NCBI GenBank assembly: GCA_949318235.1
Contig: OX439134.1
Coordinates: forward strand, 15,962,091-16,026,090
Direction of reading: 5' to 3'
Length of the DNA: 64,000 nucleotides
Source of the DNA: Ecdyonurus torrentis
Lineage: Eukaryota; Arthropoda; Insecta; Ephemeroptera; Heptageniidae
Below the pieces are notes generated by a model. That model was given only the letters and a program-made list of their open reading frames with translations, ran no database searches and was not told the origin of the DNA. Below, piece after piece: positions 11,894 to 58,375 of the stretch (position 1 is the stretch's first letter; every line of letters begins with the position of its first letter). A program made the position numbers and the translations under genes.

Positions 11894-12530
11894 ATGAGCA
11901 AAGACGACTTAATAAGCCATGAACAAAGTATTGGAACTTTGAACAACGTACATTTCATTGATGATGAGACTACATCGAACACATCAACATTAACTGTGCG
12001 ACGTACTGGAATATCTCGAGTGAACACGGTATCCGGAACTTTAACAGAACATGAGGCTACAGCAGCCGGTAACACATTACCTCAAACTCCCCCGGTATCA
12101 CGTTCTGCAGGTGCTAGAAATGCTGCGTTACGTCGAGCGGCTCTGTTGATTCGTGCATCCAGATCAGCGGCTTCTCTACAAGGGACGACAGGGTCACTCC
12201 CAAGACCTGGATCTTTAAGAGCATGGCCACCACCACCGCCTTCTAGATCTCAGTCACTTATCTTTTCAGCACCTCCAGCTCAACCTTGTTGTTGTTGTGG
12301 GACACCTGGGGACACGCAACAAGCAGCGAATCAAACTTTTGTGGGTGGAGGACCAGCCTTTATTAGAAGTCCGGTAAGTAATAAAAAGAAAAAAAAATCA
12401 TTTTTTTTAGCAGTAACTATAAAGAATAATAAAACCCAAAGAATTTTTATTAAAGTGAACTAATTTGATAAGCCTCACTATGTAAAGTATTTATGTGTAT
12501 GTAATATTAATAGGGAGCTGAGCCACACAT

Positions 12531-12619
<89 letters not shown>

Positions 12620-14513
12620 ATATCAAAGGACACGACAAAAAATTACGTAATACATTTAAATTTCTATTCATTGCCTCATATATAACATAAAAAAATGTTG
12701 CTTAACTTTTGGAATTACATAAATATTAATTATACTTTACAATGCAATCAGTATAATGTTATGTATAGCATAATTAGTATATAAATTAGCATTAAAATTA
12801 AACATGATGCTTTAAATATGCCGTTGAAATATTATACTAGCTATATAGTACTAAATAGCATAATATTATAATTATTATGCATTTCCGAGTGCACATAATT
12901 GAATTTTATTTATACTATATAGATTCAAATTATTTAATTTATTTGTAATAATAGATGCATTTCGTAAAACACACGAGTTATAAATACGGACGCTTTTCTC
13001 TTCCAAAATTAAGGCCTGTTCAAGTTGGTGAAATCGAGCAAATTATACCTCGCACTTTCATGAAAAAGTCATAGACGATTGTAATATATTTTACCATTCA
13101 AAAACTGGTACTCAATTTGGAATGTTATTCTTATGAAAAAAAAAAAAAAATGCTCAGATCAATTTAAATGGTATAATAAAAGTGATAAAATATATTATCA
13201 GAGTTCTGAGTCCCCCCCCCCTCTCTCTCCCTCTCTCTCTTATAAAGGAATAGACCAGAGAAAAACATAAGCAAGTGATGGGACTTACATAAATAACTTT
13301 AGTTTGTCTCAAAACCCAACTGTAGGTCCGTAGCAGTGATCCGCAGAAATTTTTATTTATGCAAACCGCACAACTTTTTCATACTAATTTTTGCATGTTT
13401 CTGACATCATAAACATGAATAGTCACGCAAATAGCATACTTTACAGTATTTTCAATTTCTCTCGTGGAGCTAAATTAACATTCTGGTGTGTAAATTTCCA
13501 AATTTGAGCGAACATTGACAAATCAATATATATTATGTATTTTTTTTTAATTAAGTGTCCAAAACAACATTTCCCAAGTTATCATACTGTATATGTTATT
13601 GAATTTTCATATGTATAGTAATGGTCTAGTAATTTGTGTTTTGGACTTTTAATCATAATATTTTTCACACGTACAGAAAAGAAGAAATAACTTAATTTAT
13701 ACTGCTTTTTTGACATTATAACATTGCTAAATTGGAAAAACGGTCGTATGTTCTAAGCAATATAATATTATTTATAAGTAGAGTGTATAGTTGTTGTGAA
13801 TAAATGTTACTTATAATATGAGCTATAGCATATTTATTTTGTACATAAATATAATTATTTCACTTTATCTTAACTTGTTTTCTTTCCTCATTCCTGTGAT
13901 TATTATTATAATTAGACTGATTGATGATTGACGTGATTTCAGAGTCGCACCTCTGAGGACCCTGAGGCTCAGAGTAACCCTGATGGTAGCTTGACACCAA
14001 ATGGTCTCTCTTGGAGACGTCTGCACGTTAGCAGAGCCAAACTGAAAGCTACTGCGACCACTTCAGAGCTGCTCTCAGGATTTGCCATGGTCAGTATAGG
14101 CCGAAGCAGCCGTCAATCGCTGCCTGAGCGATAACCGTGCGACAACTATCGCTGGCTCCCGATTGGCTTTGCGCAAAAAGTTAGACCAATCCTAACTCTA
14201 GCGCACTCTAACGGTCCTTGTCGCAAAAAGACCGACTGACGGCTGCGTCGGCCTTATATAACTCACTCTATATATTATGTAATGCATATTATGTATTAAA
14301 AATAAAATCATGAATAAATCTTTACTACACGGAAAGTATAAATTACGTAATTAAAGCTGCATTTATGTCATTATACAGCATAATTTATGCTAAATTAAAT
14401 CAACATAATTAATGAGCAAGACTACAAAAAATTTAGGGGCTCATCATATACCATATTCTAAAAGATCGTCTTGAATCTATAAATATATAAACTTTTAATT
14501 TTTGAGTTCATTA

Positions 14514-14545
<32 letters not shown>

Positions 14546-16083
14546 GGAAACTCACAAAATGATGTCACAGGCTTCAACTTTTGTATGTGGGCATAGGAAA
14601 AAGTTGCAGCCTGTGACGTCATTTCACTACTTTCAAAAATTAATTAAAATTACTTAATGAACTCAAAAATTAGAAAATTGCATATTTATAGATTCAGGAC
14701 AATGTGCAACTTTAAGAATATGAAATAAAATTATCTTCTAAAATTTGTTAGTCTTCCTCATTATGTTGTACAACATAATATTTATGCTTTGTAGCATAGC
14801 CATTATATGAAGTATAGCATAATATATTATGCTGTATTGAGCAAATTGTGCTGGGATTGAGCTATTTACGTATTGATTTTTATCAGTGTGCATAAAAACA
14901 GAATTAAAAAAAATATTTTTAAAGATATTATTATTTTAAATTATAACTATAATAATTATACTTAAGTTAAATTTGTCAATGAATTGCTTGCAAAGTATAG
15001 ACAGACAACATACATGAATTAGAACCACTCAAATAAATGTTTTCTAAATTAAACTTTATATTTCAATTGACCATAAATATTATTGATAGCTTTTACAGCG
15101 CAAGCCCGATTTTTTTTTTGTCATTATTTGTCATATTATTGATAGTTAAATGCTCTCGTTAAACAATAAAAAAATAAAACATTTTTTTTTTTTCAATCAC
15201 AAGTATACTTGTCAATGCATTGCCATGTAGTTCTGATAACGGCACGTTTTATCTTTTACCGTACACAGTGGCCAAAAAAAAAAGAATAGAGATTTTTACA
15301 ACCGGATGCATATCTTTGTTTCAAACAATTTTCTTCATAGATAAATACTAACATTTTATCAATATAATATTGAAATTAATTACGTATTCAATTTTATTCC
15401 TATGTATAACTTGATAAGAATCCGAAAAAAAGGTGTGTCCGGTTGAAATAACCACTCTTATTATTTTAGCAATGTTATAGTATTTATAAAAAAATATGAT
15501 AATATTACTTTAATTATGTACAATTATTCCATTAAAAAAATAAACTGAACTCCCACATTTTCTTTTCCAGGTAGCAATGGTTGAACTACAAATAAACGAT
15601 AATACTAAGGTTCCTGAATGGCTCTTCGTATTGTTCTCTATCTGTACCACAGTTCTGGTATCAGTTCATATTTTTGCCCTAATGATCAGCACTTACATAT
15701 TACCAAACATCGATGCCATAAGTAGACTACAAACAAGTGAACTCGTAGTCGAATCTCCACATGAAAGAATGCGTTGGTTTATCGAACTAGCTTGGGGATT
15801 TTCAACTGTATTAGGTCTTTTTTTATTTTTAGTTGAAGTTGCAATTTTATGTTGGGTTAAATTTTGGGATTATTCTTTTACTGCTGCTGTAGCTTCAACG
15901 GTAATTGTTGTACCTTCTTTAGCAATTTTTGTTGGATTTGCTGTACATTTTTATCATACTTTAGTTGTACATAAATGTGAGGCTTCTGATGTAGATTTAA
16001 AACAATTAGAAATTATGAAACAACAATTAGATATTGTTACTGAAAAAGAGGCTATGGGGAAAACAGGATTTGGAAATATATAA
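11894..16083 (+). CDS. ORAI-type CRAC calcium channel, unit 1 (3 coding exons)
   Basis: Store-operated Ca2+ channel subunit of the plasma membrane; in animals ORAI assembles as a hexamer opened by ER-resident STIM. Exons are 11894-12373, 13943-14089 and 15571-16083, all phase 0, giving 379 aa. An acceptor (TTTCTATTTCTAG) just before the ATG implies an upstream 5'UTR exon. Residues 1-160 are a variable N-terminus with an LRRAALLIR segment and a CCCCG cluster. Exon 2 gives the pre-TM1 helix ([15 protein letters not shown]) and exon 3 the four TM segments. Selectivity-filter Glu is E214 (human E106); H242 matches H134 and E298 matches E190. R91 is T199 and A94 is E202. The [20 protein letters not shown] tail keeps the hinge and C-terminal helix that bind STIM. 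It looks the most canonical of the four units. Confidence 0.93.
12530..12616. repeat. (GA)n microsatellite in ORAI unit 1 intron 1
   Basis: About 87 bp of GA dinucleotide, roughly 160 bp after the exon 1 donor. The rest of this intron is AT-rich apart from the family A MITE at 13241. Confidence 0.97.
13241..13487 (+). mobile_element. TTAA-ended MITE, family A, 3'-truncated copy
   Basis: It starts TATAAAGGAATAGACCAGAG (TTAA mutated to TATA) after a C/CT-rich tract and follows family A until ACATTCTGG, then loses similarity. The family TGACGTCA site is mutated to TGACATCA here. Lies in intron 1 of ORAI unit 1. Confidence 0.8.
14096..14258. mobile_element. GC-rich inverted-repeat element next to a splice donor
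   Basis: The ends GGCCGAAGCAGCCGTCA and TGACGGCTGCGTCGGCC are near-perfect inverted repeats of about 17 bp, flanked by TATA on both sides. The element begins only about 6 bp after the exon 2 donor (CATG|GTCAGT) of ORAI unit 1. It is far richer in GC than the surrounding intron and has no reading frame. Confidence 0.75.
14410..14763 (+). mobile_element. Fold-back MITE, family C, copy 2
   Basis: It runs from TAATGAGCAAGA to GTCTTCCTCATTA with internal arms TTTTTGAGTTCATTAAG and TTAATGAACTCAAAAATTAG, a poly-T expansion at 14519-14545 and a TGACGTCA at 14614. It lies in intron 2 of ORAI unit 1. Confidence 0.8.
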
Positions 16084-20099: not shown

Positions 20100-20243
20100 T
20101 CTCTTCTATTTAGTCACTTACTTTGTACACATGCGCACTTGTATGACGTCATTCACAAACGAGATATGGCAATCTACAGTCCTCGATATTCCAGGGTTAC
20201 TCAGGTGCACATAAACACACAAACTATAGGAAAAAACGCTCAG
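20100..20243 (+). other. Candidate 5' exon of ORAI unit 2
   Basis: A stretch less AT-rich than its flanks ends in a strong donor, CGCTCAG|GTGAGTAAG at 20243/20244, and could join the acceptor at 21120. If so, a short frame from ATG 20166 ends at a TGA overlapping the unit 2 start (ATGA at 21153), so it would be an upstream ORF rather than an N-terminal extension. A TGACGTCA site lies at 20144. Its true 5' limit is unknown. Confidence 0.35.
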
Positions 20244-21152: not shown

Positions 21153-22818
21153 ATGAGCAACAATAAATGGAGAGAAAATATCAACATACCTCGTCTTTTA
21201 ACAGATGATACATCAAACAAGCAATGGAGTACATCTGATATACATTTCTCTCAACTTGATACACATCCTGCTACTAGTTTAGGTAGTTTAAAATCAATGG
21301 CGAGCGTCCCAGACTTAAGAACTCATATAGACAGTCCACATAGTTTACATCGTACAGTTCTGATGATGAGAAATAACCCAGAATCCTTGCAGTTTAGTAG
21401 GTATCAAGATATGGAGGACTCGAATGAGATGATATGTACCACGGAATGTTGTTGTTGTGGAGAACAGGTGGAGGTAGCAGAGGAGAATACGTATTTGGTG
21501 AGTAAATTAAGCCTGTGAGTTTCTTAGACAAGCAAACAGTTTTGAGACCTACTAACTCATCCGTTTCAACGTAATACGCATGCGTAGTATGTAGTAACGG
21601 AAGCGAATATGATCGAAATCCTATAAAGTTGGCCTCAAAAGTCTCAAAACAGATGCTTCTATATATAAGAATTATCATACACAAATTATCATATATACCA
21701 AAATTAAAAACTTTAAGTCAAGTTGTTGTTTTTTTCTACAAAAATGAAATTTGATATTCGATATAATTAAATATAAATAAATATAGAAATAATGCATGCT
21801 ATTTTATAAAATAAACCGCATATTATAAGAAATTTTAAAAGTCGAAATTTTTACTGTTTTAATTTGCTATATATGTACATAAATTGCAGATATGTATGTT
21901 TTAACATAATAAATAGTAATTTGTAGTTTTCATTTTTTTTTTTTTTACCCTTCACATAAATGCATATTTTCTATTAAAACATTTCTTACTTATATCAATT
22001 GTCTTGTGATATAATATATTTTTCAATTGTGTTTAATAGGATGAGTCCGAAGAAATGACTGGTGAGGCAACATCGTCTATACTCTCTTGGCGTCAGTTAT
22101 ACATCAGCAGAGCTAAACTTCAGGCTGCAAGTACAGCTTCCGAGCTCCTCTTTGGATTTGCGATGGTAAGATCATATAATATAATTAAAAAGCATAAATA
22201 TGCATAATTTGTTGCATCAATATTGATATATTCCTATTCCAATTGTTCTATGCTATGTATTCATTCATTCATTCATTCATTCATTCATTCATTCATTCAT
22301 TCATTCATTCATTCATTCATTCATTCATTCATTCATTCATTCATTCATTCATTCATTCATTCATTCATTCATTCATTCATTCATTCATTCATTCATTCAT
22401 TCATTCATTCATTCATTCATTCATTCATTCATTCATTCATTCATTCATTCATTCATTCATTCATTCATTCATTCATTCATTCATTCATTCATTCATTCAT
22501 TCATTCATTCATTCATTCATTCATTCATTCATTCATTCATTCATTCATTCATTCATTCATTCATTCATTCATTCATTCATTCATTCATTCATTTCCATCC
22601 TATTGAATTGTTTACAATTTTTTACTATATTAAAAATTGCATTGCATTGTCTTATATTATAATTACGAAAATAACAGAATAATATTATTAAAATTTACAT
22701 AAATATTTACTCGTATGATATGATATACTCTTGCTAAATTTCCATGATGATTACAATATACTAACGTATTTTGTTACAAACATATTAAAAAATAAGAAGG
22801 AATACATTATATTATTAA

Positions 22819-22879
<61 letters not shown>

Positions 22880-23421
22880 ACAATTAAAAGAAACCCCCAT
22901 GTTCAAATATGTATACTATAACGTTAATTTGTCTCTTTTACATCATGTTACAGATCGGTCTTGTAGAATTACAAATCAACAAACCAACCAACGTCCCAGA
23001 AGGCATGTTTATATTATTCTCCATCAATACGTCATTTCTTGTGATCATACATATTTTAGCATTAATGATCAGTACATTCATCCTACCTAACATTGATACA
23101 GTAAACAGTTTACATCCAAGTGCACTGATAGACGAATCACCACATCATAGAATGAGATGGTTTATTGATATAGCGTGGGTATTCTCTACCATGTTAGGAA
23201 TGTTTTTATTTTTATTTGAAGTTATTTTATTTTCTTGGTTCAAATTTTGGGATTATTCATTCTCAGCAGCACTCTCATCTACTGTTTTTATGACATTGTC
23301 GATTTCAATTTTTATTGTGTTTGCTTTGTATTTTTATCATACTATGAATGTTTATGTTTATGATTATAATAATGTGATTGTAAGAGATTTAGAATTAACT
23401 AATGAAGTGCAAGATAAATAA
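21153..23421 (+). CDS. ORAI-type CRAC channel, unit 2 (3 coding exons)
   Basis: Exons 21153-21497, 22040-22165 and 22954-23421, all phase 0, give 312 aa. The ATG at 21153 was chosen because the acceptor at 21119-21120 cuts off an ATG further upstream. Exon 1 encodes a variable N-terminus with SLHRTVLMMR and a CCCCGE cluster, parallel to unit 1. Exon 2 has LSWRQLYISRAKLQA. Exon 3 has the filter Glu in IGLVELQIN, a conserved His at the H134 position (LVIIHILALM) and Glu at the E190 position (FLFEVILFSW). R91 is Thr, A94 is Glu, S97 is Phe. After TM4 the usual LVxHK hinge is replaced by MNVYVYDYNN and the C-terminal helix is short, so STIM coupling may be altered. It lies 5.1 kb after unit 1 in the same direction, as a tandem duplicate. 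Confidence 0.92.
21524..21655. mobile_element. MITE family G, diverged copy
   Basis: Related to 39770-39928, 43084-43660 and 43766-43920: CAGTTTTGAGACCTACTAAC at the left and AAAGTTGGCCTCAAAAGTCTC at the right are imperfect inverted ends. It lies in intron 1 of ORAI unit 2, just after the donor. Confidence 0.5.
22259..22592. repeat. (TTCA)n microsatellite in ORAI unit 2 intron 2
   Basis: About 330 bp of uninterrupted ATTC repeat lies roughly 95 bp after the exon 2 donor. Frames reading IHSFIHSF across it are artefacts. The same intron of unit 3 carries the reverse-complement motif. Confidence 0.98.
22822..22878. repeat. (CT)n microsatellite near an ORAI acceptor
   Basis: A pyrimidine tract of about 57 bp, 75 bp before the exon 3 acceptor of unit 2. 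Confidence 0.97.
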
Positions 23422-25089: not shown

Positions 25090-25271
25090 AGAAAAGCAAC
25101 GCATGCGCCTACTTAACGAACGTAAGCACCTGACCACTTGCTAATTAATGTTAACAAGTGCCGCGGTCACAACAACGTCTTCCCAGCCCAACTCACTTCT
25201 GCTCTGCTGTTATATATCATAAAGTGGTTGGTGGAAAAGTTTCTAATTATCTCTTTACCTGCTTTTTGAGG
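25090..25271 (+). other. Candidate 5'UTR exon of ORAI unit 3
   Basis: A segment less AT-rich than its flanks (GCATGCGCC, GTGCCGCGGTCAC, CAGCCCAACTCACTTCTGC) ends in TTTTTGAGG|GTAAGTTAT, a consensus donor. It could join the acceptor at 27195. Assignment rests on composition and donor quality only. Confidence 0.35.
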
Positions 25272-27207: not shown

Positions 27208-29464
27208 ATGCCTCAATCTAAAAAAGAACATCAAAATTCACAAAATAGCTTGAGTTCTTCTTCTAATGAAAAACTATCTAAAGAATCTGGAGAAAATAAA
27301 TTAAAAAAGTTATTAAGATCTCGACCTCAACATTCTCCTCCATCTCCACCAACTCAAAGACGTAAACTTAATCTATCTGAAAGTGATGAGGTTGAAGTTT
27401 CATTTCACCCAGACGCAATTAGTAAACCTTCAGCATTTACAGAAAATATTGATAAAATCGTACAAAGACCATTCAAAGATAACATTCAGACTGATGGACC
27501 ACCTATCGTACCACCTAGACCAAAACATCTAAGTAAAAAATATGGAATGCTTGCGTATTTAAATTCAAGAGTAAATCTAAAACCATCAACAGAATCTACT
27601 TTACCACGAAGTAAATCAATGCCTTTATTTTTAAATATTAATTCAAGTGATAAAGAATTAAATACAACAAAATCTGAAGTAAAACTGGAACCAATAAAAA
27701 GAAAAATATCAAATTTACTTCAACCTTTAGATTCAAAAATTAGTAAAAATTTTCATAATTCATTATCTGAAGGGTTTTCACGTGAATTAAGAAAAGTAAA
27801 ATCAACATTATCTATAGCAAAGAAAAATCCATTATCATTACCTAAAAATAATGAATTAAATAATAAAGTTGAAGAAGAATATAAACATGATATTAATATT
27901 GATATTATTGAAGAAGTTGATTCAAATGAAGATTCTAATTCAAAAAGAAGTTCAATTCTTTCAAATTTATATTCAGATATACAAAAATCATATACAGTTC
28001 CTATTGTAAAAAGAAAATATACAGTTTTAAAAAGATGTAAATCTTTACCTGAATTTACTAATCAGAAAACTGAATTAAAATTTTCTTTTAATGAATCACC
28101 ACCTTTATCATTAATATTTAATAATAGAAATATTAGCTCTCTAAATGATGAATTAAATCATAAAAAGGAAGTTGAAAATGAAGACTTGGATAAATCGGAA
28201 AATACGGACAGTATTGCAATTTTCGTCACAAGTTATTCCTCCGATGAAGATGATTCTTCAAAAAATTCAACAGAAGAAACTATGGAAACTACAGTTATTG
28301 TACATCCTGAACCTTCTGAACTAAAAATTCCTGAAACTGAACCTATAAAACCTGAACCTTCAACTCCAAAATCATTCAGGAATATTTCAGAAAAAATAAA
28401 TAATTTAAAAAGAAAATCATCGTCAAGCTTAACAGATAATAACAGAACATTTTTAACTGTTAATTCTATATTAAATTTAAAACGTAATTTAAGTTCTGAT
28501 TCTTTAAATAATTTAACTACAAGTAATAAATTTGCTATTCAACCAAAATATCCATTAAGAGAAAATTTAAGTATGGATACTTCAAAAGGACTTCAAGGGC
28601 AAGCAAGATTACGACGGGCAGCATTAGTAGTGAGAACTACAAAATCTGTTTCAACTATATTTGCACAGGATCATAAATATTGCTGTGAAAATTGTAAGAA
28701 GAAAGAGAGAAATCAGCAGGTAAAATAATAATTAATTTGAGTTAAATTGCAATTTTAATTTAGCGAATAAAAAATTAATAAGGTCATATATGTACGAGAA
28801 AATAAGAAAATTAGTACGATATACGATATGTGATCATGTTTAATAATTTATTAATTTTTTTTTCTTCTTTTTTTTCTTTTTTCCAGGTTTAAAAAAAAAA
28901 AAATTTAAAAATAGTTTTGAAAAGTAATATTTTGAATATCCTAATAACTTTTTTAAGACAGAACTATCGGGCAGACAATATTTTATCGCTTTCACCGTAA
29001 CTTAAAAAAAAAAAAATACTTCCAGTACTCTTACGTAAGAAATCTTAATAATACAGTATAATAATAAAGTGGTCTCTTTAGTTGTTGTTGTTGTTTTCAA
29101 ATCTTCAGATTTTATTAATTTTCTTCACTCATACATATTTTTTTAGAGTTATTTACCTATTTACTTTAACATCAAGTATTTTGATGCAGAAAAAAAAAAT
29201 TCTAAACGAGCTTGATTTTTCGTTGAAATATTTGATATTTTCAGAATATCTTACAAGTTAGAGTATTTTAGAAGTATTATTAAATTTATAATTCTTTAAA
29301 AATACGCGGAGTGTACTGCATGATAAAAATCCCTTGCAGGTTCTGTAATAAATAACGAAGTAGTCGATTATCTTAAGCCAGTGGAATAGACAAAAATATC
29401 CTATCTTAAAATTGCATTATAAATTATAGTAAATACTACAATATCGTCTTTTTTTAACTCTATA

Positions 29465-29500
<36 letters not shown>

Positions 29501-30723
29501 TATTAGAATGTATGCAGTAAATCTATTGATTCATCATGATGTTATAACAAATAACAAATGTACATTATTGATAGCATATTTGTAAAAATGTATATTCAGC
29601 AAAATATTTTCTATAGCCGTATCACAACGATCCTCAATACGAGCGAGATGGAAGTTTGACATTATTGGGTCGATGTTGGCACAGGCTCCACGTCAGCAAA
29701 GCTCGTCTTAAAGCAACTTCCACCACGTCAGAGCTTTTTGCAGCATTTGCGATGGTAACTTAATATTTCATATAAAATTGATCTGATTTTTTTCTTTATG
29801 AAAATTTACAGTAATAGAAAATAAATAATTAAATCTTAGAGTATAAAAATACAGTATAGCCCATTTTGTTTTTCCAGCAGATAAAGAAAAATGTTGCGAA
29901 AGAGTCGTATGTATATGCAATACCATTAATAAAAATAGTTTATTTTATTATATATACGTATGCTCAATCAAGTATTTTCATTGAAATTCATACTAAATAT
30001 ATGCAGAACGTTTAGAGTATAACAATTTATATTTCGCACTTGATTGTGAATCCAAGTTCAACGAAAAGAACAATTGGAATTAAAATTAATACTTCTTTTA
30101 AAATGAATGAATGAATGAATGAATGAATGAATGAATGAATGAATGAATGAATGAATGAATGAATGAATGAATGAATGAATGAATGAATGAATGAATGAAT
30201 GAATGAATGAATGAATGAATGAATGAATGAATGAATGAATGAATGAGCACTTACAAATTGTGATTTTAACAATAACTACAGTATAAGCAATGACGATTGT
30301 ATAATTTTTTAAATTGTTACATTTATTTTGCAGGTTGCTTTGGTTGAATTACAAATCAACACACCATGTACAGTGCCAGATATATTTTGGATCCTGTTCT
30401 CCATGAACACCACTATGCTAGTCGGTGTCAACATTCTTGCACTCATGATCAGTACCTTCATCCTCCCTAACATTCACGCGGTGACAAGACTACACCCCAC
30501 TGCTCTAGTCGCAGAGTCACCTCACGATACCATGAAACGTTTCATAGAGTTAGCCTGGGGTTTCTCAACTTTTCTCAATCTTATGCTTTCTATCATCAAT
30601 ATTGCACTCATCAGTTGGGTCAAGGTATGTCGGAAAATTTTATTATCTATAGAATTTTATGATCCTGACGAAATTAATGGCAGGATTTAACTATTGGCAA
30701 ACGTAGTAATAAAAACTTAAAAC

Positions 30724-30763
<40 letters not shown>

Positions 30764-31405
30764 TATAGAGGGATGAAACTTTAAAATCTGAATACCCAGA
30801 GAATAGGATTAGATTTGATCACAATACAATAAGACTCAATATTGCAGTGTAGTACGTTGCATTAAACGAATAGCTATTTAGAATAAAATAAAATTAATTT
30901 GAACACAACTTTTTTTTTTTTTTTTTGGTACAGATAAAATATTTTCTCATTTTAAATGCAGTATTTATTCAGAAGTTTCGCACAGTATATTATATTTATA
31001 TATAATAAAATCAAATTAATTTAAACAAATTTGCAAAAAAAAAAAAAAAAAAAAAAAAAAAATGCTGTTATTTATTTTAGATTTTTTTTTTTCTTATTTC
31101 AGTTTTGGGATTTTGGTGTCGCTGGGGCTATAACATCAACTGCTATCGTAATCCCGTCTCTTGTGATTTTCATTCTTGTCGCATTACATTTTTATCGTAT
31201 ACTAGAGGTTAATGAGAGAGAAATAGCCAGTGAAGAATATCATGGGCAAGCATCGACCAATCATAAAGGAGGATTTGATAACCCAGGCTTTGTCAATACG
31301 GAGGAAACACAAAGACAAGACGATGTATCGATCAGAATTAATCAGGTTTGTAATTGCAAGGAGTCAAAAAAATGTTTTATCATAATAAATGCATTAAATA
31401 AATAA
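27208..31405 (+). CDS. ORAI-type CRAC channel, unit 3 (long N-terminus; may continue into unit 4)
   Basis: Coding exons 27208-28719, 29617-29754, 30334-30624 and 31103 onward, all phase 0. Exon 1 gives 504 residues, far longer than usual ORAI N-termini: Ser/Lys/Asn-rich, probably disordered, with proline motifs (SPPSPPTQRRK, PPIVPPRPK) that resemble SH3 ligands, then LRRAALVVR and a CCENC cluster. Exon 2 is CWHRLHVSKARLKA plus TM1 start; exon 3 has the filter Glu in VALVELQIN. Odd residues: human H134 is Asn (LVGVNILALM), E190 is Asn (LSIINIALISW), G98 is Ala, R91 is Thr. An extra intron splits WVK/FWD. After TM4 the LVxHK hinge is lost. Exon 4 either ends at donor CAG|GTTTGT (31345) and splices to unit 4, or reads on to a stop at 31405 beside AATAAA, giving 747 aa. 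Confidence 0.88.
30103..30246. repeat. (GAAT)n microsatellite in ORAI unit 3 intron 2
   Basis: About 144 bp of uninterrupted GAAT repeat, 88 bp before the exon 3 acceptor. It is the reverse complement of the ATTC tract in the matching intron of unit 2. Confidence 0.98.
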
Positions 31406-32194
31406 AGGAGTAAATAAATTAATAAGCATCAAGTATTAAATATTTAAAAAAAGTAATTAATTGTTTGATAAAATGTTAAGTATTTATAGAAGCAGAAGAA
31501 TATATTTCATAATAGCTCGTGTCTTTGTGTAATATTACTTTAATACAGTAAAATTTATGTATTTTATTCGTGTTCCATATTAATTTACCTGTGACATGAA
31601 TGCAATTAATGCATGAGTACACGTAAAACGTTATAGTCGTCCTCTTCATTACAAAAAAAAAAAGTTTAATCCGTTTATTTAATATGCTGTCATAATCTCA
31701 TAATCAACTATCTTAGTGTGTCAATTGAAAAAAAAATATATATAAAAAAAAGAATAAATAATAATTATTATATTACTTCTTTTCCGAACTCTATTTTGCA
31801 GTATTATACAGTAGTTTAAAAATATATATTATTAATGTAAAAAAATAAATCGTATTATCTATAATCTATCTACAATTTTTTATGCATAAAGTATATTTTA
31901 GTGCTTTTGTTAGGTAAGAAATTATTAAATTCTCTAAATTTTTTAGCTGTTGAAAAGTGAATGAACTTGAAGTATTAAAAATATATCATAACGAATAAAT
32001 AAAATAAAAAATAGTTCACATTAGAGACCGCATATAAAACTATAAAAATTCTAAAGTTAATTATTGGAAAATTATTTCATGAAATTTTATAACATTTAAA
32101 TATCGCAATTATTTTACAGCCTATCAACTACTATACTATAAATATACTGTGACTACTACTACTTTATTAACTACAGACTATATTTTCCTATCAG

Positions 32195-34072
32195 GTTCAC
32201 TCAGACTCTCGTGCAGACAACAATGCTGATGGCAGTTTGACACCTCGAGGTTTTCAATGGCGATCACTTCACGTCAGTCTTGCCAAATTAGAAGCCACAT
32301 CTTCAGCTTCAGAACTTATGTCTGGTTTTGCTACGGTAACTTTTTTTTTATAATATTTTCATGAAAACTTCGGAATATTAAAAATAACTGAATAACAATT
32401 ACACTATAAAATTATGTGCTTACATTACATATACATCCATCTGTATTTGTAGGCAAATACTATTTTTAAATAAATGATACATGAGAATTATTTAAATCGT
32501 ATCACAGCAGAACATGTTTATTTGGTTATAAAATTATATTATAAAAAAAAAATAATAATAAGCATAGAAAAAAATATACAATTTTTAAAACTGCAAGGTT
32601 TAAGCCTGACAGGATATCATTACGTTTAGAGAGTATTATCAAGGAATCTCCTACGAAGAAATCACCACAATTTGAGTTTAAAAAGAAGTAATTTAAAATC
32701 TGTTTTGATTTTGTTAGATGATCAGCGTTATTATATATCTCCCCTTAAAAAGATCCATTTAAAATCGCTATTAAAATCGCTCGATATGGGACTATCTTAT
32801 TAAATACACATATTTTGTTTCTTTAAGTTTCTGTACCTCACAAACTGGAGTTGAAAAATTGTAAAGTACGCAACTTTAGGAATTCACGACGTCATGAAAT
32901 CTAGGTCTGCAATTGAAATTATAAAAAGAGTTCCTGCTAAGTTTTCTGTGCTGTTTATGATGCTAGTTATTTTAAGATTTATTTTATTGTAAATACAAAG
33001 CATTAAAAAAAAATATAATAATAATAATGAATTATATTGTTTATTATTATTAAATTTTTTTTGTAAAATTAAATTGTAATGATACTAATGATCAATTAAA
33101 CCAACCAATAAGGCTACACCTTGGTTGGACAATGTATGAAAATGAAATATTATTAATAATAAAAAGGGTTAAAAGATATAATAAAGTTATGCGTAATGTT
33201 TACCCGTCGAAGTGAACGAACAACACCTTACAAATTTTACTCAATATGAACGATCTACGTTTGGTGCTTCTACGCGTTTTAACATGAGAACTAGATGGGG
33301 GAACTTGGAAATTGTAAAGTGTAGAACGTTCATTTTTTCCCCAAATTTGTAAAGTGTAGTATGTTCACTTCGACGGGTAAGCATCGGCATGTAAATTGGT
33401 CATATCTTGTAATTTATCAAAAAAGTTTTTTTTTTTTTTTTTTTTTTAAATACAGGATCCCTTTTAATCGTATCGTCTAAAAACTTTTTTTAAGAAGCAA
33501 ATTATAACATTTACTAATTAACGTATCTTAAATTATAGATGGCAACCGTAGAACTACAAACCAACAGCCCAACAGTAATCCCGACCTGGATGTTCGTATT
33601 ACTGGCAATCAACTCAACTGTGCTAGTTTTATTAAATATATTTGCACTCATGATAAGTACATTTATACTACCCTGTGTAGAAGCAATTACACACCAACGT
33701 GGTAGTAATTTAGCACACAACTCTCCTCATCAATATTTAAGAAAATATGTTGAAATTGCATGGGTACTTTCAACAGTTCTAGGAATGATCGTGTTTTTAT
33801 TTGAAGTAATAATTTTATCATGGACAAAATTTTGGGACTTTTCATTTGATGGTGCGGCAGCTTCTACTGCTATAATATTAATTGCTATGCTTGTATTTAT
33901 TGGTTTTACTGCTTATTTTTATTATACTTTAGTTGATCATAAATGTGAGACTTCTGATGATGATTTAAAACAATTAGATGAAATGAAGAGAAAATTAGAT
34001 GAAGCTACAAGTGTTATTAATACAAATAAATTTCATATGGATGAGTATTTTACAGGAGAGAGGCTTATTTAA
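32195..34072 (+). CDS. ORAI-type CRAC channel, unit 4 (no own start exon seen; likely spliced from unit 3)
   Basis: Two coding exons, 32195-32335 and 33539-34072, phase 0. The first matches the second coding exon of units 1-3 (DGSLTPRGFQWRSLHVSLAK) and follows a good acceptor (TTTTCCTATCAG). No exon with an ATG, LRRAALL segment and Cys cluster lies between 31346 and 32194, so the simplest reading is splicing from the unit 3 donor at 31345, for a total of 952 aa. A separate short protein starting at ATG 33539 would lack the pre-TM1 helix. The filter Glu is in MATVELQTN. Human R83 is Leu, K87 Glu, R91 Ser, V102 Met and H134 Asn (LVLLNIFALM); E190 is kept (FLFEVIILSW). The LVDHKCETSDDDLKQLDEMK tail keeps the STIM-binding hinge and helix, closest to unit 1. 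Confidence 0.87.
33200..33380. mobile_element. Inverted-repeat element in unit 4 intron
   Basis: Perfect 18-bp ends TTACCCGTCGAAGTGAAC and GTTCACTTCGACGGGTAA. The 181-bp element has no reading frame and ends about 158 bp before the last ORAI exon. A repeated TTGTAAAGTGTAG block lies near its right end. Confidence 0.75.
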
Positions 34073-36093: not shown

Positions 36094-36699
36094 TCTTCAG
36101 GCTAGAGCACAACAACCACGTTTCTTCAAAAGCAACAAAGTTCAAAACAAAACAACAACAAAGACAAGTTTCATCTTTGCTGCTTTTGTAGTTAAATCTG
36201 CCAATAAGAGAAATTGAAGACCCTCTGATGAGTTTATGAAAGACCATGTATAACAATGCATTTATATCAGTTTTTAAAATATTAAAATTTAAAAATAATT
36301 TTTCTCTATACATCGATCTTATTGCGAAAAAAAGGCCTATCTCATTTTTTGTCAGTGGAAGCAAAAGGCCTATCTCATATTTTGTCAGTGGAAGCAAAAG
36401 GCCTATCTCGTTCCCGAACGTTATGGCGATAGCGCTCGAGATAGGCCTTTTGCTTCCACTGACAAAATACGAGATAGGCCTTTTGCTTCCACTGACAAAA
36501 AACGAGATAGGCCCTTTTTTCGCAACAAGATCGATATGTATAAATATGTTTGTATTATATTTGTGTAGCTTTTGACTATCATTTCTAATTGTATCAACTG
36601 ATACAATAACCTAAGCCGATATACATTGTTGTATATTGTGATTGTAGGATGAAAGAAATGAATAAATATATTTTGAATTTGAATACGGGTTGTGCTCTA
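36094..36699. mobile_element. Inverted-end element with a tandem-repeat hairpin core
   Basis: The ends TAGAGCACAACA and GGTTGTGCTCTA are inverted repeats. The core, about 36320-36536, has three direct copies of AAAGGCCTATCTC spaced by TTTTGTCAGTGGAAGC, followed after CCCGAACGTTATGGCGATAG by three inverted copies (GAGATAGGCCTTTTGCTTCC). It is bounded by GATCTTATTGCGAAAAAA and TTTTTTCGCAACAAGATC. Frames across it read the repeat and are not genes. Confidence 0.7.
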
Positions 36700-40293: not shown

Positions 40294-45303
<5,010 letters not shown>

Positions 45304-54790: not shown

Positions 54791-55449
54791 TTAGCGTCGG
54801 CGCTACAGGTTGCTTCTATTCTATATAATATACCGCTTCTCTGTGTGCTTTTTGCCTTTTCTAAAATAAACGTGTAGGCGTAGGTCGGAATATACACGCG
54901 CGCGCACTGTATAGCTCCATCATACACACAGCATCCAATGTATTTCTATACATCATTCATTCTTCAATCATCTAACAAAGTGACAACATCAAAATTTAAC
55001 TTCAAAATAATATTAATAATATTAATCTTATATCTTGTGAATATATAAGAAAATATAGTGAGATTTTTTGTTAATATATATATTTGCCTCGTCAAATCAA
55101 TATTTTTACAAAATAAGCTTATATATATAGGGGGAATGCAGGATCGAATGTCACGTAGTGAACAATTCCGTCAATCTTTTGTATCTTGGAGACCTAGAGG
55201 GAGTGTTTCACCTGGTTATGTACTGTACGCATGATTTAAAATATACACACAAACATATTATATGAAAAAAACACATTATTATTATATAGTAACTTTTTAG
55301 TAGTATGTAAAAAAAAAAAAAAAAAAAAAGTCATAATGATGAATTTATCTGCTGAATTAAGACGACGACGTTTTATAATGAGTACTGCTGTAACTAGATC
55401 TGAAGAACATCCCCCTTATGTGGTACCATGTTACAGGGCCAGTTCCATA

Positions 55450-58375
<2,926 letters not shown>

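What the first reader, a model, noticed from the sequence alone, without database searches (positions are those of the whole stretch)
27208..34072. Two ORAI channel units appear to be spliced into one natural tandem-dimer protein
Unit 3 exon 4 ends ...ATT AAT CAG|GTTTGT at 31345, a usable phase-0 donor. The next exon with an acceptor in the same phase is 32195, the pre-TM1 exon of unit 4. Nothing like the ATG-containing first exons of units 1-3 lies between. Unit 3 has lost the STIM-binding hinge and helix, while unit 4 keeps them; that would make sense if unit 3's tail is now a linker and unit 4 supplies the one C-terminal coupling helix. ORAI channels work as hexamers built from dimer pairs, and researchers use artificial linked dimers to study them. 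A natural linked dimer (about 952 aa) would assemble as three chains. The alternative is that unit 3 stops at 31405 and unit 4 has an unseen start.
Basis: partly seen in the sequence, partly recalled or inferred. Interest (0 to 1): 0.92.

Follow-up and report, generated by a model that had tools for sequence, protein, structure and literature searches.

The report
Possible natural two-in-one ORAI calcium channel
In what is probably a mayfly genome, two neighbouring calcium-channel genes look as if they are spliced into one double-length protein whose halves have both lost a residue that keeps related channels shut; the DNA favours this reading but no RNA has yet shown the join.

Summary
Four ORAI units lie in tandem on the + strand. 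Unit 3 exon 4 ends at a phase-0 donor (CAG|GTTTGT, 31345); unit 4's pre-TM1 exon begins at a phase-0 acceptor (32195). The joined frame is 952 aa with two Pfam ORAI domains.

Further evidence favours the fusion. The donor resembles the cluster's others. The 19 codons after it look non-coding. No ATG exon with a good phase-0 donor lies between the units. Unit 4 is intact and shows protein constraint, yet cannot start alone without losing its N-terminal helix.

Two points are new. And both halves carry Asn at the TM2 'steric brake' histidine (H in 123 of 123 relatives fetched); unit 4 also lacks the TM4 proline, any replacement of which opens human ORAI1. I infer a STIM-lean or constitutive hexamer of three chains.

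No transcript was available. No two-domain relative was seen among 123 fetched proteins; one protein search was uninformative and the window's own genome could not be searched. New variant of a known kind; fusion about 0.6 likely.

The parts
27208..28719 (+). Unit 3 exon 1: ATG and 504-aa N-terminal region ending in an RRAALVVR...CCENC stretch like that of unit 1; phase-0 donor
29617..29754 (+). Unit 3 exon 2, pre-TM1 region
30334..30624 (+). Unit 3 exon 3, TM1 to TM3; Asn at the TM2 brake position, Asn at the E190 position
31103..31345 (+). Unit 3 exon 4, end of TM3 to TM4 and the divergent tail that would become the linker; STIM-coupling hinge and helix residues lost
31346..32194 (+). Proposed 849-nt intron joining unit 3 to unit 4; codons 31346-31402 look non-coding; rival stop at 31403-31405
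32195..32335 (+). Unit 4 pre-TM1 exon (exon 5 of the fused gene); no in-frame ATG before the residue-96 equivalent
33539..34072 (+). Unit 4 last exon (exon 6): TM1 to TM4 and the C-terminal coupling helix, stop
11894..16083 (+). Unit 1, conventional ORAI: exons 11894-12373, 13943-14089, 15571-16083
21153..23421 (+). Unit 2, divergent ORAI: exons 21153-21497, 22040-22165, 22954-23421

Best explanation
Units 3 and 4 form one gene whose main product joins exon 4 of unit 3 (31345) to the pre-TM1 exon of unit 4 (32195): a 952-aa chain with two complete four-helix ORAI domains and about 54 cytosolic residues between them. Shown: the open phase-0 frame, two ORAI domains, splice-site quality, no separate coding start found for unit 4, protein constraint, the residue changes. 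Inferred: that the junction is spliced in vivo, and everything about assembly and gating. Three chains would make one hexamer holding the two diverged cores in fixed 3:3 proportion, probably alternating. Only the three unit 4 cores keep a STIM-binding helix. All six cores carry Asn at the TM2 steric-brake histidine (H134 in human ORAI1, H206 in fly), and the three unit 4 cores lack the TM4 kink proline (P245). Since small residues at H134 and any residue at P245 open human ORAI1, and H134A channels keep working with a damaged hinge, the channel is probably partly or fully open without STIM, which would explain how unit 3 could lose its hinge and helix.
For: Frame and length; two Pfam ORAI stretches; donor 31345 and acceptor 32195 in the range of the cluster's other sites. 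The 19 codons after the donor score as non-coding: 18 of 1384 left-out coding windows are as low (2 of 898 without unit 3 exon 1), while the 19 codons before it score like coding DNA (743 of 1384 coding windows at or below; 279 of 3662 open non-coding windows at or above). No ATG exon with a phase-0 donor in the gap. If unit 4 began at exon 5, three out-of-frame ATGs would precede the first in-frame one, which lies at the residue-96 equivalent. Unit 4 is an open 224-aa frame; between units, differences are most frequent at codon position 3 and least at position 2 in 6 of 6 comparisons. H134 site: H in 123 of 123 fetched relatives, N in both unit 3 and unit 4; P245 site: P in 123 of 123, I in unit 4. 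Passages on H134, P245, hinge independence and dimers: PMC7825772, PMC12893689, PMC7948504.
Against: No transcript or peptide. No other two-domain ORAI among 123 proteins fetched. Donor 31345 is of middling strength and a phase-0 donor this good has about 5% chance of occurring in that stretch. Exon 1 can splice past unit 3 to 32195 in phase. Chance absence of a start exon is likely anyway (0.28 expected). In an artificial ORAI1 series, one disabled C-terminus of six cut open probability by about 90%, so a channel with three coupling helices should be poorly STIM-gated. H134N itself was not found tested in print. 16 of 486 windows of unit 3's own exon 1 score as low as the post-donor stretch.
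Confidence: 0.6

Rival explanations
1. Shared first exon: unit 3 exon 1 is spliced either to exons 2-4, which end at the stop at 31405 or in an unseen short terminal exon, or directly to unit 4 exons 5-6. This gives two ORAI proteins of ordinary domain content (747 aa if the stop at 31405 is used, 728 aa for the other) and no dimer.
For: All introns are phase 0, so exon 1 to 32195 keeps the frame and gives 728 aa. In-phase acceptors leading to a stop within 0-10 codons exist in the gap, best 31802 at 7.15 bits. Exon 1 ends in an ORAI-type N-terminal motif that would suit either core.
Against: Needs three exons skipped as a block. If exon 4 ends at its donor, the codon scores being non-coding beyond it, transcripts with exon 4 must go on to a further exon, and 32195 is the best-scoring acceptor listed for 31346-32400.
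Confidence: 0.2
2. Unit 4 is a separate gene with its own promoter and a first exon not recognised here, and unit 3 ends on its own.
For: Strong donors 5' of units 2 and 3 (20243, 25271) suggest that those units have their own 5' exons, and a fairly strong donor, 31913 (TAG|GTAAGA, 9.05 bits), lies in the gap.
Against: The frame into 31913 ends in an in-phase stop, so that exon would be non-coding, and exon 5 then offers three out-of-frame ATGs before an in-frame one that cuts off the pre-TM1 helix. The 200 nt before 31913 have GC 0.17, against 0.33 and 0.405 before 20243 and 25271 (80 and 23 of 425 non-coding windows reach those two values, so the contrast is modest). No other donor above 4.2 bits in the gap.
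Confidence: 0.1
3. Units 3 and 4 are decaying copies: unit 4 lost its first exon and unit 3 its C-terminus, and the open joint frame is accidental.
For: Both have changes at positions invariant in the 123 relatives, and long branches.
Against: The exons are open and in phase at 42% identity to each other and 57% (unit 4) or 44-48% (unit 3) to unit 1. Codon-position differences are those of constrained coding sequence. The filter Glu (E106), L95, F99, L138 and W176 are kept in both.
Confidence: 0.08

Closest known systems
ORAI / CRAC channels (Pfam PF07856; fly Orai structures such as 4HKR, 6BBF, 6AKI)
   Same: Each half is an ORAI domain by Pfam; unit 4's last exon matches the fly Orai chains at E about 1e-36; selectivity-filter Glu and key pore residues kept.
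   Different: Two domains in one predicted chain; Asn at the TM2 brake in both halves; unit 3 lacks the C-terminal coupling residues; unit 4 lacks the TM4 proline.
Engineered ORAI1 dimers and other concatemers
   Same: Two subunits in tandem joined by a cytosolic linker, assembling as hexamers by the published interpretation (passages of PMC7825772; PMC7948504; PMC7178029).
   Different: Engineered linkers of 18 residues join near-identical subunits; here about 54 residues would join two cores of 42% identity, and the release-type residue is in both halves, whereas dimers with it in one half stay store-operated.
Constitutively open ORAI mutants (human H134A/C/S/T and P245L; fly H206A and P288L)
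   Same: Same positions changed: H134 site in units 3 and 4, P245 site in units 2 and 4.
   Different: Native states, not mutations; Asn at H134 and Ile at P245. H134N was not found in the one search made for it.

Membership tests
ORAI / CRAC channel (PF07856) | ORAI domain above the Pfam cut-off | tested here: met
   952-aa model: two stretches, 286.7 bits against a cut-off of 25; unit 2 and unit 1 one stretch each
ORAI / CRAC channel (PF07856) | Selectivity-filter Glu (E106) in TM1 | tested here: met
   E in all four units and in 123 of 123 relatives fetched
ORAI / CRAC channel (PF07856) | C-terminal STIM-coupling residues (K265, L273, L276) | tested here: not met
   Unit 3 alone fails: E, Y, Q. 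Unit 4 has K, L, L. This bears on STIM coupling of unit 3, not on its ORAI domain
ORAI / CRAC channel (PF07856) | Ca2+ current gated by store depletion through STIM | not testable with these tools
   needs electrophysiology
Natural ORAI tandem dimer (proposed) | Open in-phase frame across the junction with two ORAI domains | tested here: met
Natural ORAI tandem dimer (proposed) | Transcript joining 31345 to 32195 | not testable with these tools
   no reads were available; the protein collection, which holds sequences from unnamed assemblies too, gave no two-domain match
Natural ORAI tandem dimer (proposed) | Orthologous two-domain proteins in relatives | tested here: inconclusive
   0 of 123 fetched proteins has two domains; P0004 gives two matches that are the halves of one domain split by an insertion. 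83 of the 203 hits were not listed, one search returned nothing, and only two mayfly species were recognised among the named hits

The most novel reading that the evidence does not exclude
A natural, obligately concatenated ORAI heterodimer: three 952-aa chains form one hexamer with a fixed 3:3 proportion of two diverged cores, the TM2 steric brake replaced in all six positions and the TM4 kink proline in three, so that the channel conducts with little or no STIM, while the one remaining STIM helix per chain serves placement or fine tuning.
Probability: 0.4. Interest if true: 0.85.

Novelty: new variant of a known kind. Interest (0 to 1): 0.62.

Why it matters
How many STIM contacts and how many released gates are needed to open an ORAI hexamer has been studied with artificial concatemers and point mutants. 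A natural concatemer with release-type residues in both halves would be an independent, evolution-tested experiment on the same question and would show that an ORAI hexamer can be built from three chains in a living animal. Even if the fusion is not made, a four-copy ORAI cluster with native changes at the H134 and P245 sites would be unusual: the 123 relatives fetched here are invariant at both.

Tried and rejected
Unit 3 ending at 31405 as its main end: disfavoured by codon scores, not excluded. The GC drop at the donor (0.41 to 0.20) was not used as evidence, because 159 of 1372 coding windows have GC that low. Polyadenylation-type signals: AWTAAA occurs 5.7 times per kb on this strand, so those near 31405 say nothing. 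A first coding-score test trained on the very exons it was compared with (1 of 1375 coding windows as low) was over-fitted and is replaced by the leave-one-out test. The idea that unit 3's tail is a remnant of unit 4's lost first exon: the alignment to unit 1 exon 1 was reached by 8 of 500 shuffles, but those to unit 2, unit 3 and Neocloeon by 457, 209 and 102 of 500; over four tries this is weak and not claimed. Units 3 and 4 as sister copies: neither shown nor rejected (p-AU 0.162); units 1 and 4 as sisters, although the most alike by identity, are disfavoured (p-AU 0.033); long branches make both unsure. Rfam and tRNA scans of the window: nothing. Viral contigs: no relative. Literature: seven searches listed no paper that by title or abstract describes a natural ORAI tandem dimer or a mayfly ORAI; the library holds open-licence papers only, and one search listed 20 of 24.
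Full report
What the window is. GC is 28%. Unit 1, the conventional ORAI, matches two mayflies best: Neocloeon triangulifer (P0008, 61% over 378 columns, 412 bits) and Cloeon dipterum (P0007, 60% over 369 columns, 393 bits), the N-terminus included; the next of the 123 proteins compared has 331 bits. In both trees the branch that sets units 1-4 and these two mayflies apart from the other insects is well supported (100/99, 100/98). No tool names the species; 'mayfly' is my inference.

The observation. Four ORAI units lie on the + strand. Unit 1: exons 11894-12373, 13943-14089, 15571-16083. Unit 2: 21153-21497, 22040-22165, 22954-23421. Unit 3: 27208-28719, 29617-29754, 30334-30624, 31103-31345. 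Unit 4: 32195-32335, 33539-34072. All coding introns are phase 0. Units 3 and 4 joined give an open frame of 952 aa with two Pfam ORAI stretches.

Is the junction more than chance? Of 2921 GT sites on the strand 56 reach it; it beats 3 of the other 8 coding-exon donors of the cluster; no other donor in 31216-31420 is above 4. About 0.05 phase-0 donors this good are expected by chance in 31217-31405. Acceptor 32195 (8.16) is the best listed for 31346-32400, but 0.56 as good are expected per 849 nt, so it counts mainly as the homologous border of the pre-TM1 exon. Six further acceptors above 5.5 between 31380 and 32160 lead in phase to a stop after 0 to 10 codons; 32177 reads into the same exon in frame.

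Where does unit 3 end? If it ended at its own stop, 31346-31402 would be coding. With leave-one-exon-out codon scores this stretch has -0.52. Of 1384 coding windows 18 are as low, 16 of them in the AT-rich exon 1 of unit 3 and 2 in unit 2; without unit 3 exon 1 it is 2 of 898. Of 3662 open non-coding windows 3012 are at least as high. The last 19 codons before the donor score 0.18, the middle of the coding range (743 of 1384 at or below); 279 of 3662 non-coding windows are as high. This is moderate evidence that exon 4 ends at 31345.

Where does unit 4 start? In 31346-32194 there is no ATG exon with a phase-0 donor of 6.6 bits or more; 0.28 are expected (4 in 12,000 nt elsewhere), so the absence is consistent but weak alone. 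The one strong donor in the gap, 31913, follows an in-phase stop; the next best has 4.16. If exon 5 were first, three out-of-frame ATGs precede the first in-frame one, at the residue-96 equivalent, so the pre-TM1 helix would be lost. The 200 nt before 31913 have GC 0.17; those before the strong donors 5' of units 2 and 3 (20243, 25271) have 0.33 and 0.405 and hold a CATGCGC motif each, but that motif occurs elsewhere in the window too and 80 and 23 of 425 non-coding windows reach those GC values, so the promoter argument is slight. Unit 4 is nevertheless an open 224-aa frame whose last exon matches fly Orai structures at E about 1e-36, and in 6 of 6 comparisons between units the differences rank position 3, then 1, then 2, as under protein constraint. 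So unit 4 probably takes its start from upstream exons. Between 23422 and 32194 the phase-0 ATG frames with a donor of 6 bits or more are those in unit 3's own exons and two small ones (23574 and 26499).

Unit 3 exon 1 can be spliced straight to 32195 in phase, giving a 728-aa ordinary ORAI. This is not excluded and could exist beside the fusion. It needs three exons skipped as a block and another end for unit 3.

Residues. On an alignment of the four units with the 123 proteins fetched (all but one from insects or unnamed sources as far as named; P0005 is a flatworm's), the TM2 histidine (H134 human, H206 fly) is H in 123 of 123 and in units 1 and 2, but N in both units 3 and 4. The TM4 kink proline (P245 human, P288 fly) is P in 123 of 123 and in units 1 and 3, L in unit 2, I in unit 4. 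E190 is E in 122 of 123, N in unit 3. V102 is V in 110 and I in 13, M in unit 4. S97 and G98 are invariant in the 123; both are A in unit 3, and S97 is F in unit 2. R83 and K87 (R and K in 122 of 123 each) are L and E in unit 4. M101 (M in 122 of 123) is T in unit 4. K265 is K in 118 and R in 5, E in unit 3; L276 is L in 123, Q in unit 3; the L273 site is hydrophobic in all 123 (M, I, L or V), Y in unit 3. Unit 4 has K, L, L at these last three. Several of these human numbers were placed by alignment with recalled numbering. The 123 proteins were hits to the fused sequence itself and are not an even sample.

What these residues do elsewhere. From passages of two reviews: H134A/C/S/T (also V, M, E) give constitutive current, side-chain size being what matters; any residue in place of P245 opens the channel; H134A works with a damaged hinge; L273D in one of six subunits cuts open probability by about 90% (PMC7825772; PMC12893689). 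From passages of PMC7948504: artificial dimers with H134A (shown) or P245L (stated as data not shown) in one half stay store-operated, from which the authors conclude that more than three release mutations per hexamer are needed. PMC4598629 (passages) argues that one arm of a STIM1 dimer suffices for coupling. H134N was not found in print.

Mechanism. The residue pattern suggests another order: the brake residue changed in both halves, six of six in the assembled channel, above the limit of three reported for artificial dimers; the need for STIM at each subunit then fell, and unit 3 could lose its hinge and helix and turn its tail into a linker of about 54 residues (model positions 686-739). 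Engineered linkers of 18 residues suffice for dimers, so length is no obstacle. This whole paragraph is inference; Asn at H134 is untested as far as I found, and changes such as K87E, R83L and V102M in unit 4 could as well impair the channel.

Relatives. One search (residues 485-952 of the model; candidate lengths about 524-1666) gave 5 hits. One search (448 aa; about 246-784) gave 203 hits, 120 of them listed. In both, only the 7994 candidates sharing most words were scored. Scanned with a profile of the ORAI core, 122 of the 123 fetched proteins give one match; P0004 gives two that are the halves of one domain parted by an insertion; the fused model gives two full ones. One search (305 aa) returned nothing from 2087 candidates although known ORAI proteins match unit 4 well by BLAST, so it carries no information. 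The window's genome could not be searched. Absence of a fused relative is therefore weak evidence.

Verdict. The fusion is the best reading of the DNA, at about 0.6. The STIM-lean gating is a motivated inference. It is a new variant of the ORAI family, not a new kind of system.

Noticed in passing
22954-23421: Unit 2 has Leu at the TM4 kink proline, the same change as the disease mutation P245L of human ORAI1, and a diverged hinge (K265 site V), and S97 is F; it too may be a release-type ORAI.
   Followed up: partly
31264-31293: Unit 3's tail holds GGFDNPGF, which resembles FxNPxY/F-type endocytic sorting signals (recalled, not tested).
   Followed up: no
22259-22593 and 30102-30246: Long perfect ATTC and AATG arrays (reverse complements of each other) sit in the homologous introns of units 2 and 3, between the pre-TM1 and TM1 exons, in opposite orientation.
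   Followed up: no
20166-20243 and 25150-25271: Likely non-coding 5' exons of units 2 and 3: strong donors (14.2 and 11.4 bits) after stretches with CATGCGC, one with TGACGTCA beside it.
   Followed up: partly
36330-36518: Two facing arrays of a 33-bp unit that look like inverted copies of each other; the - strand reads as a 176-aa frame without Pfam match.
   Followed up: no
40294-41717: On the - strand an RRM exon (Pfam PF00076) and a frame rich in Arg, Ser and Gly; it looks like an SR-type splicing factor gene (the name is recalled).
   Followed up: no
55240-55590: On the + strand the first coding part of a dynein light chain gene (Pfam PF01221).
   Followed up: no
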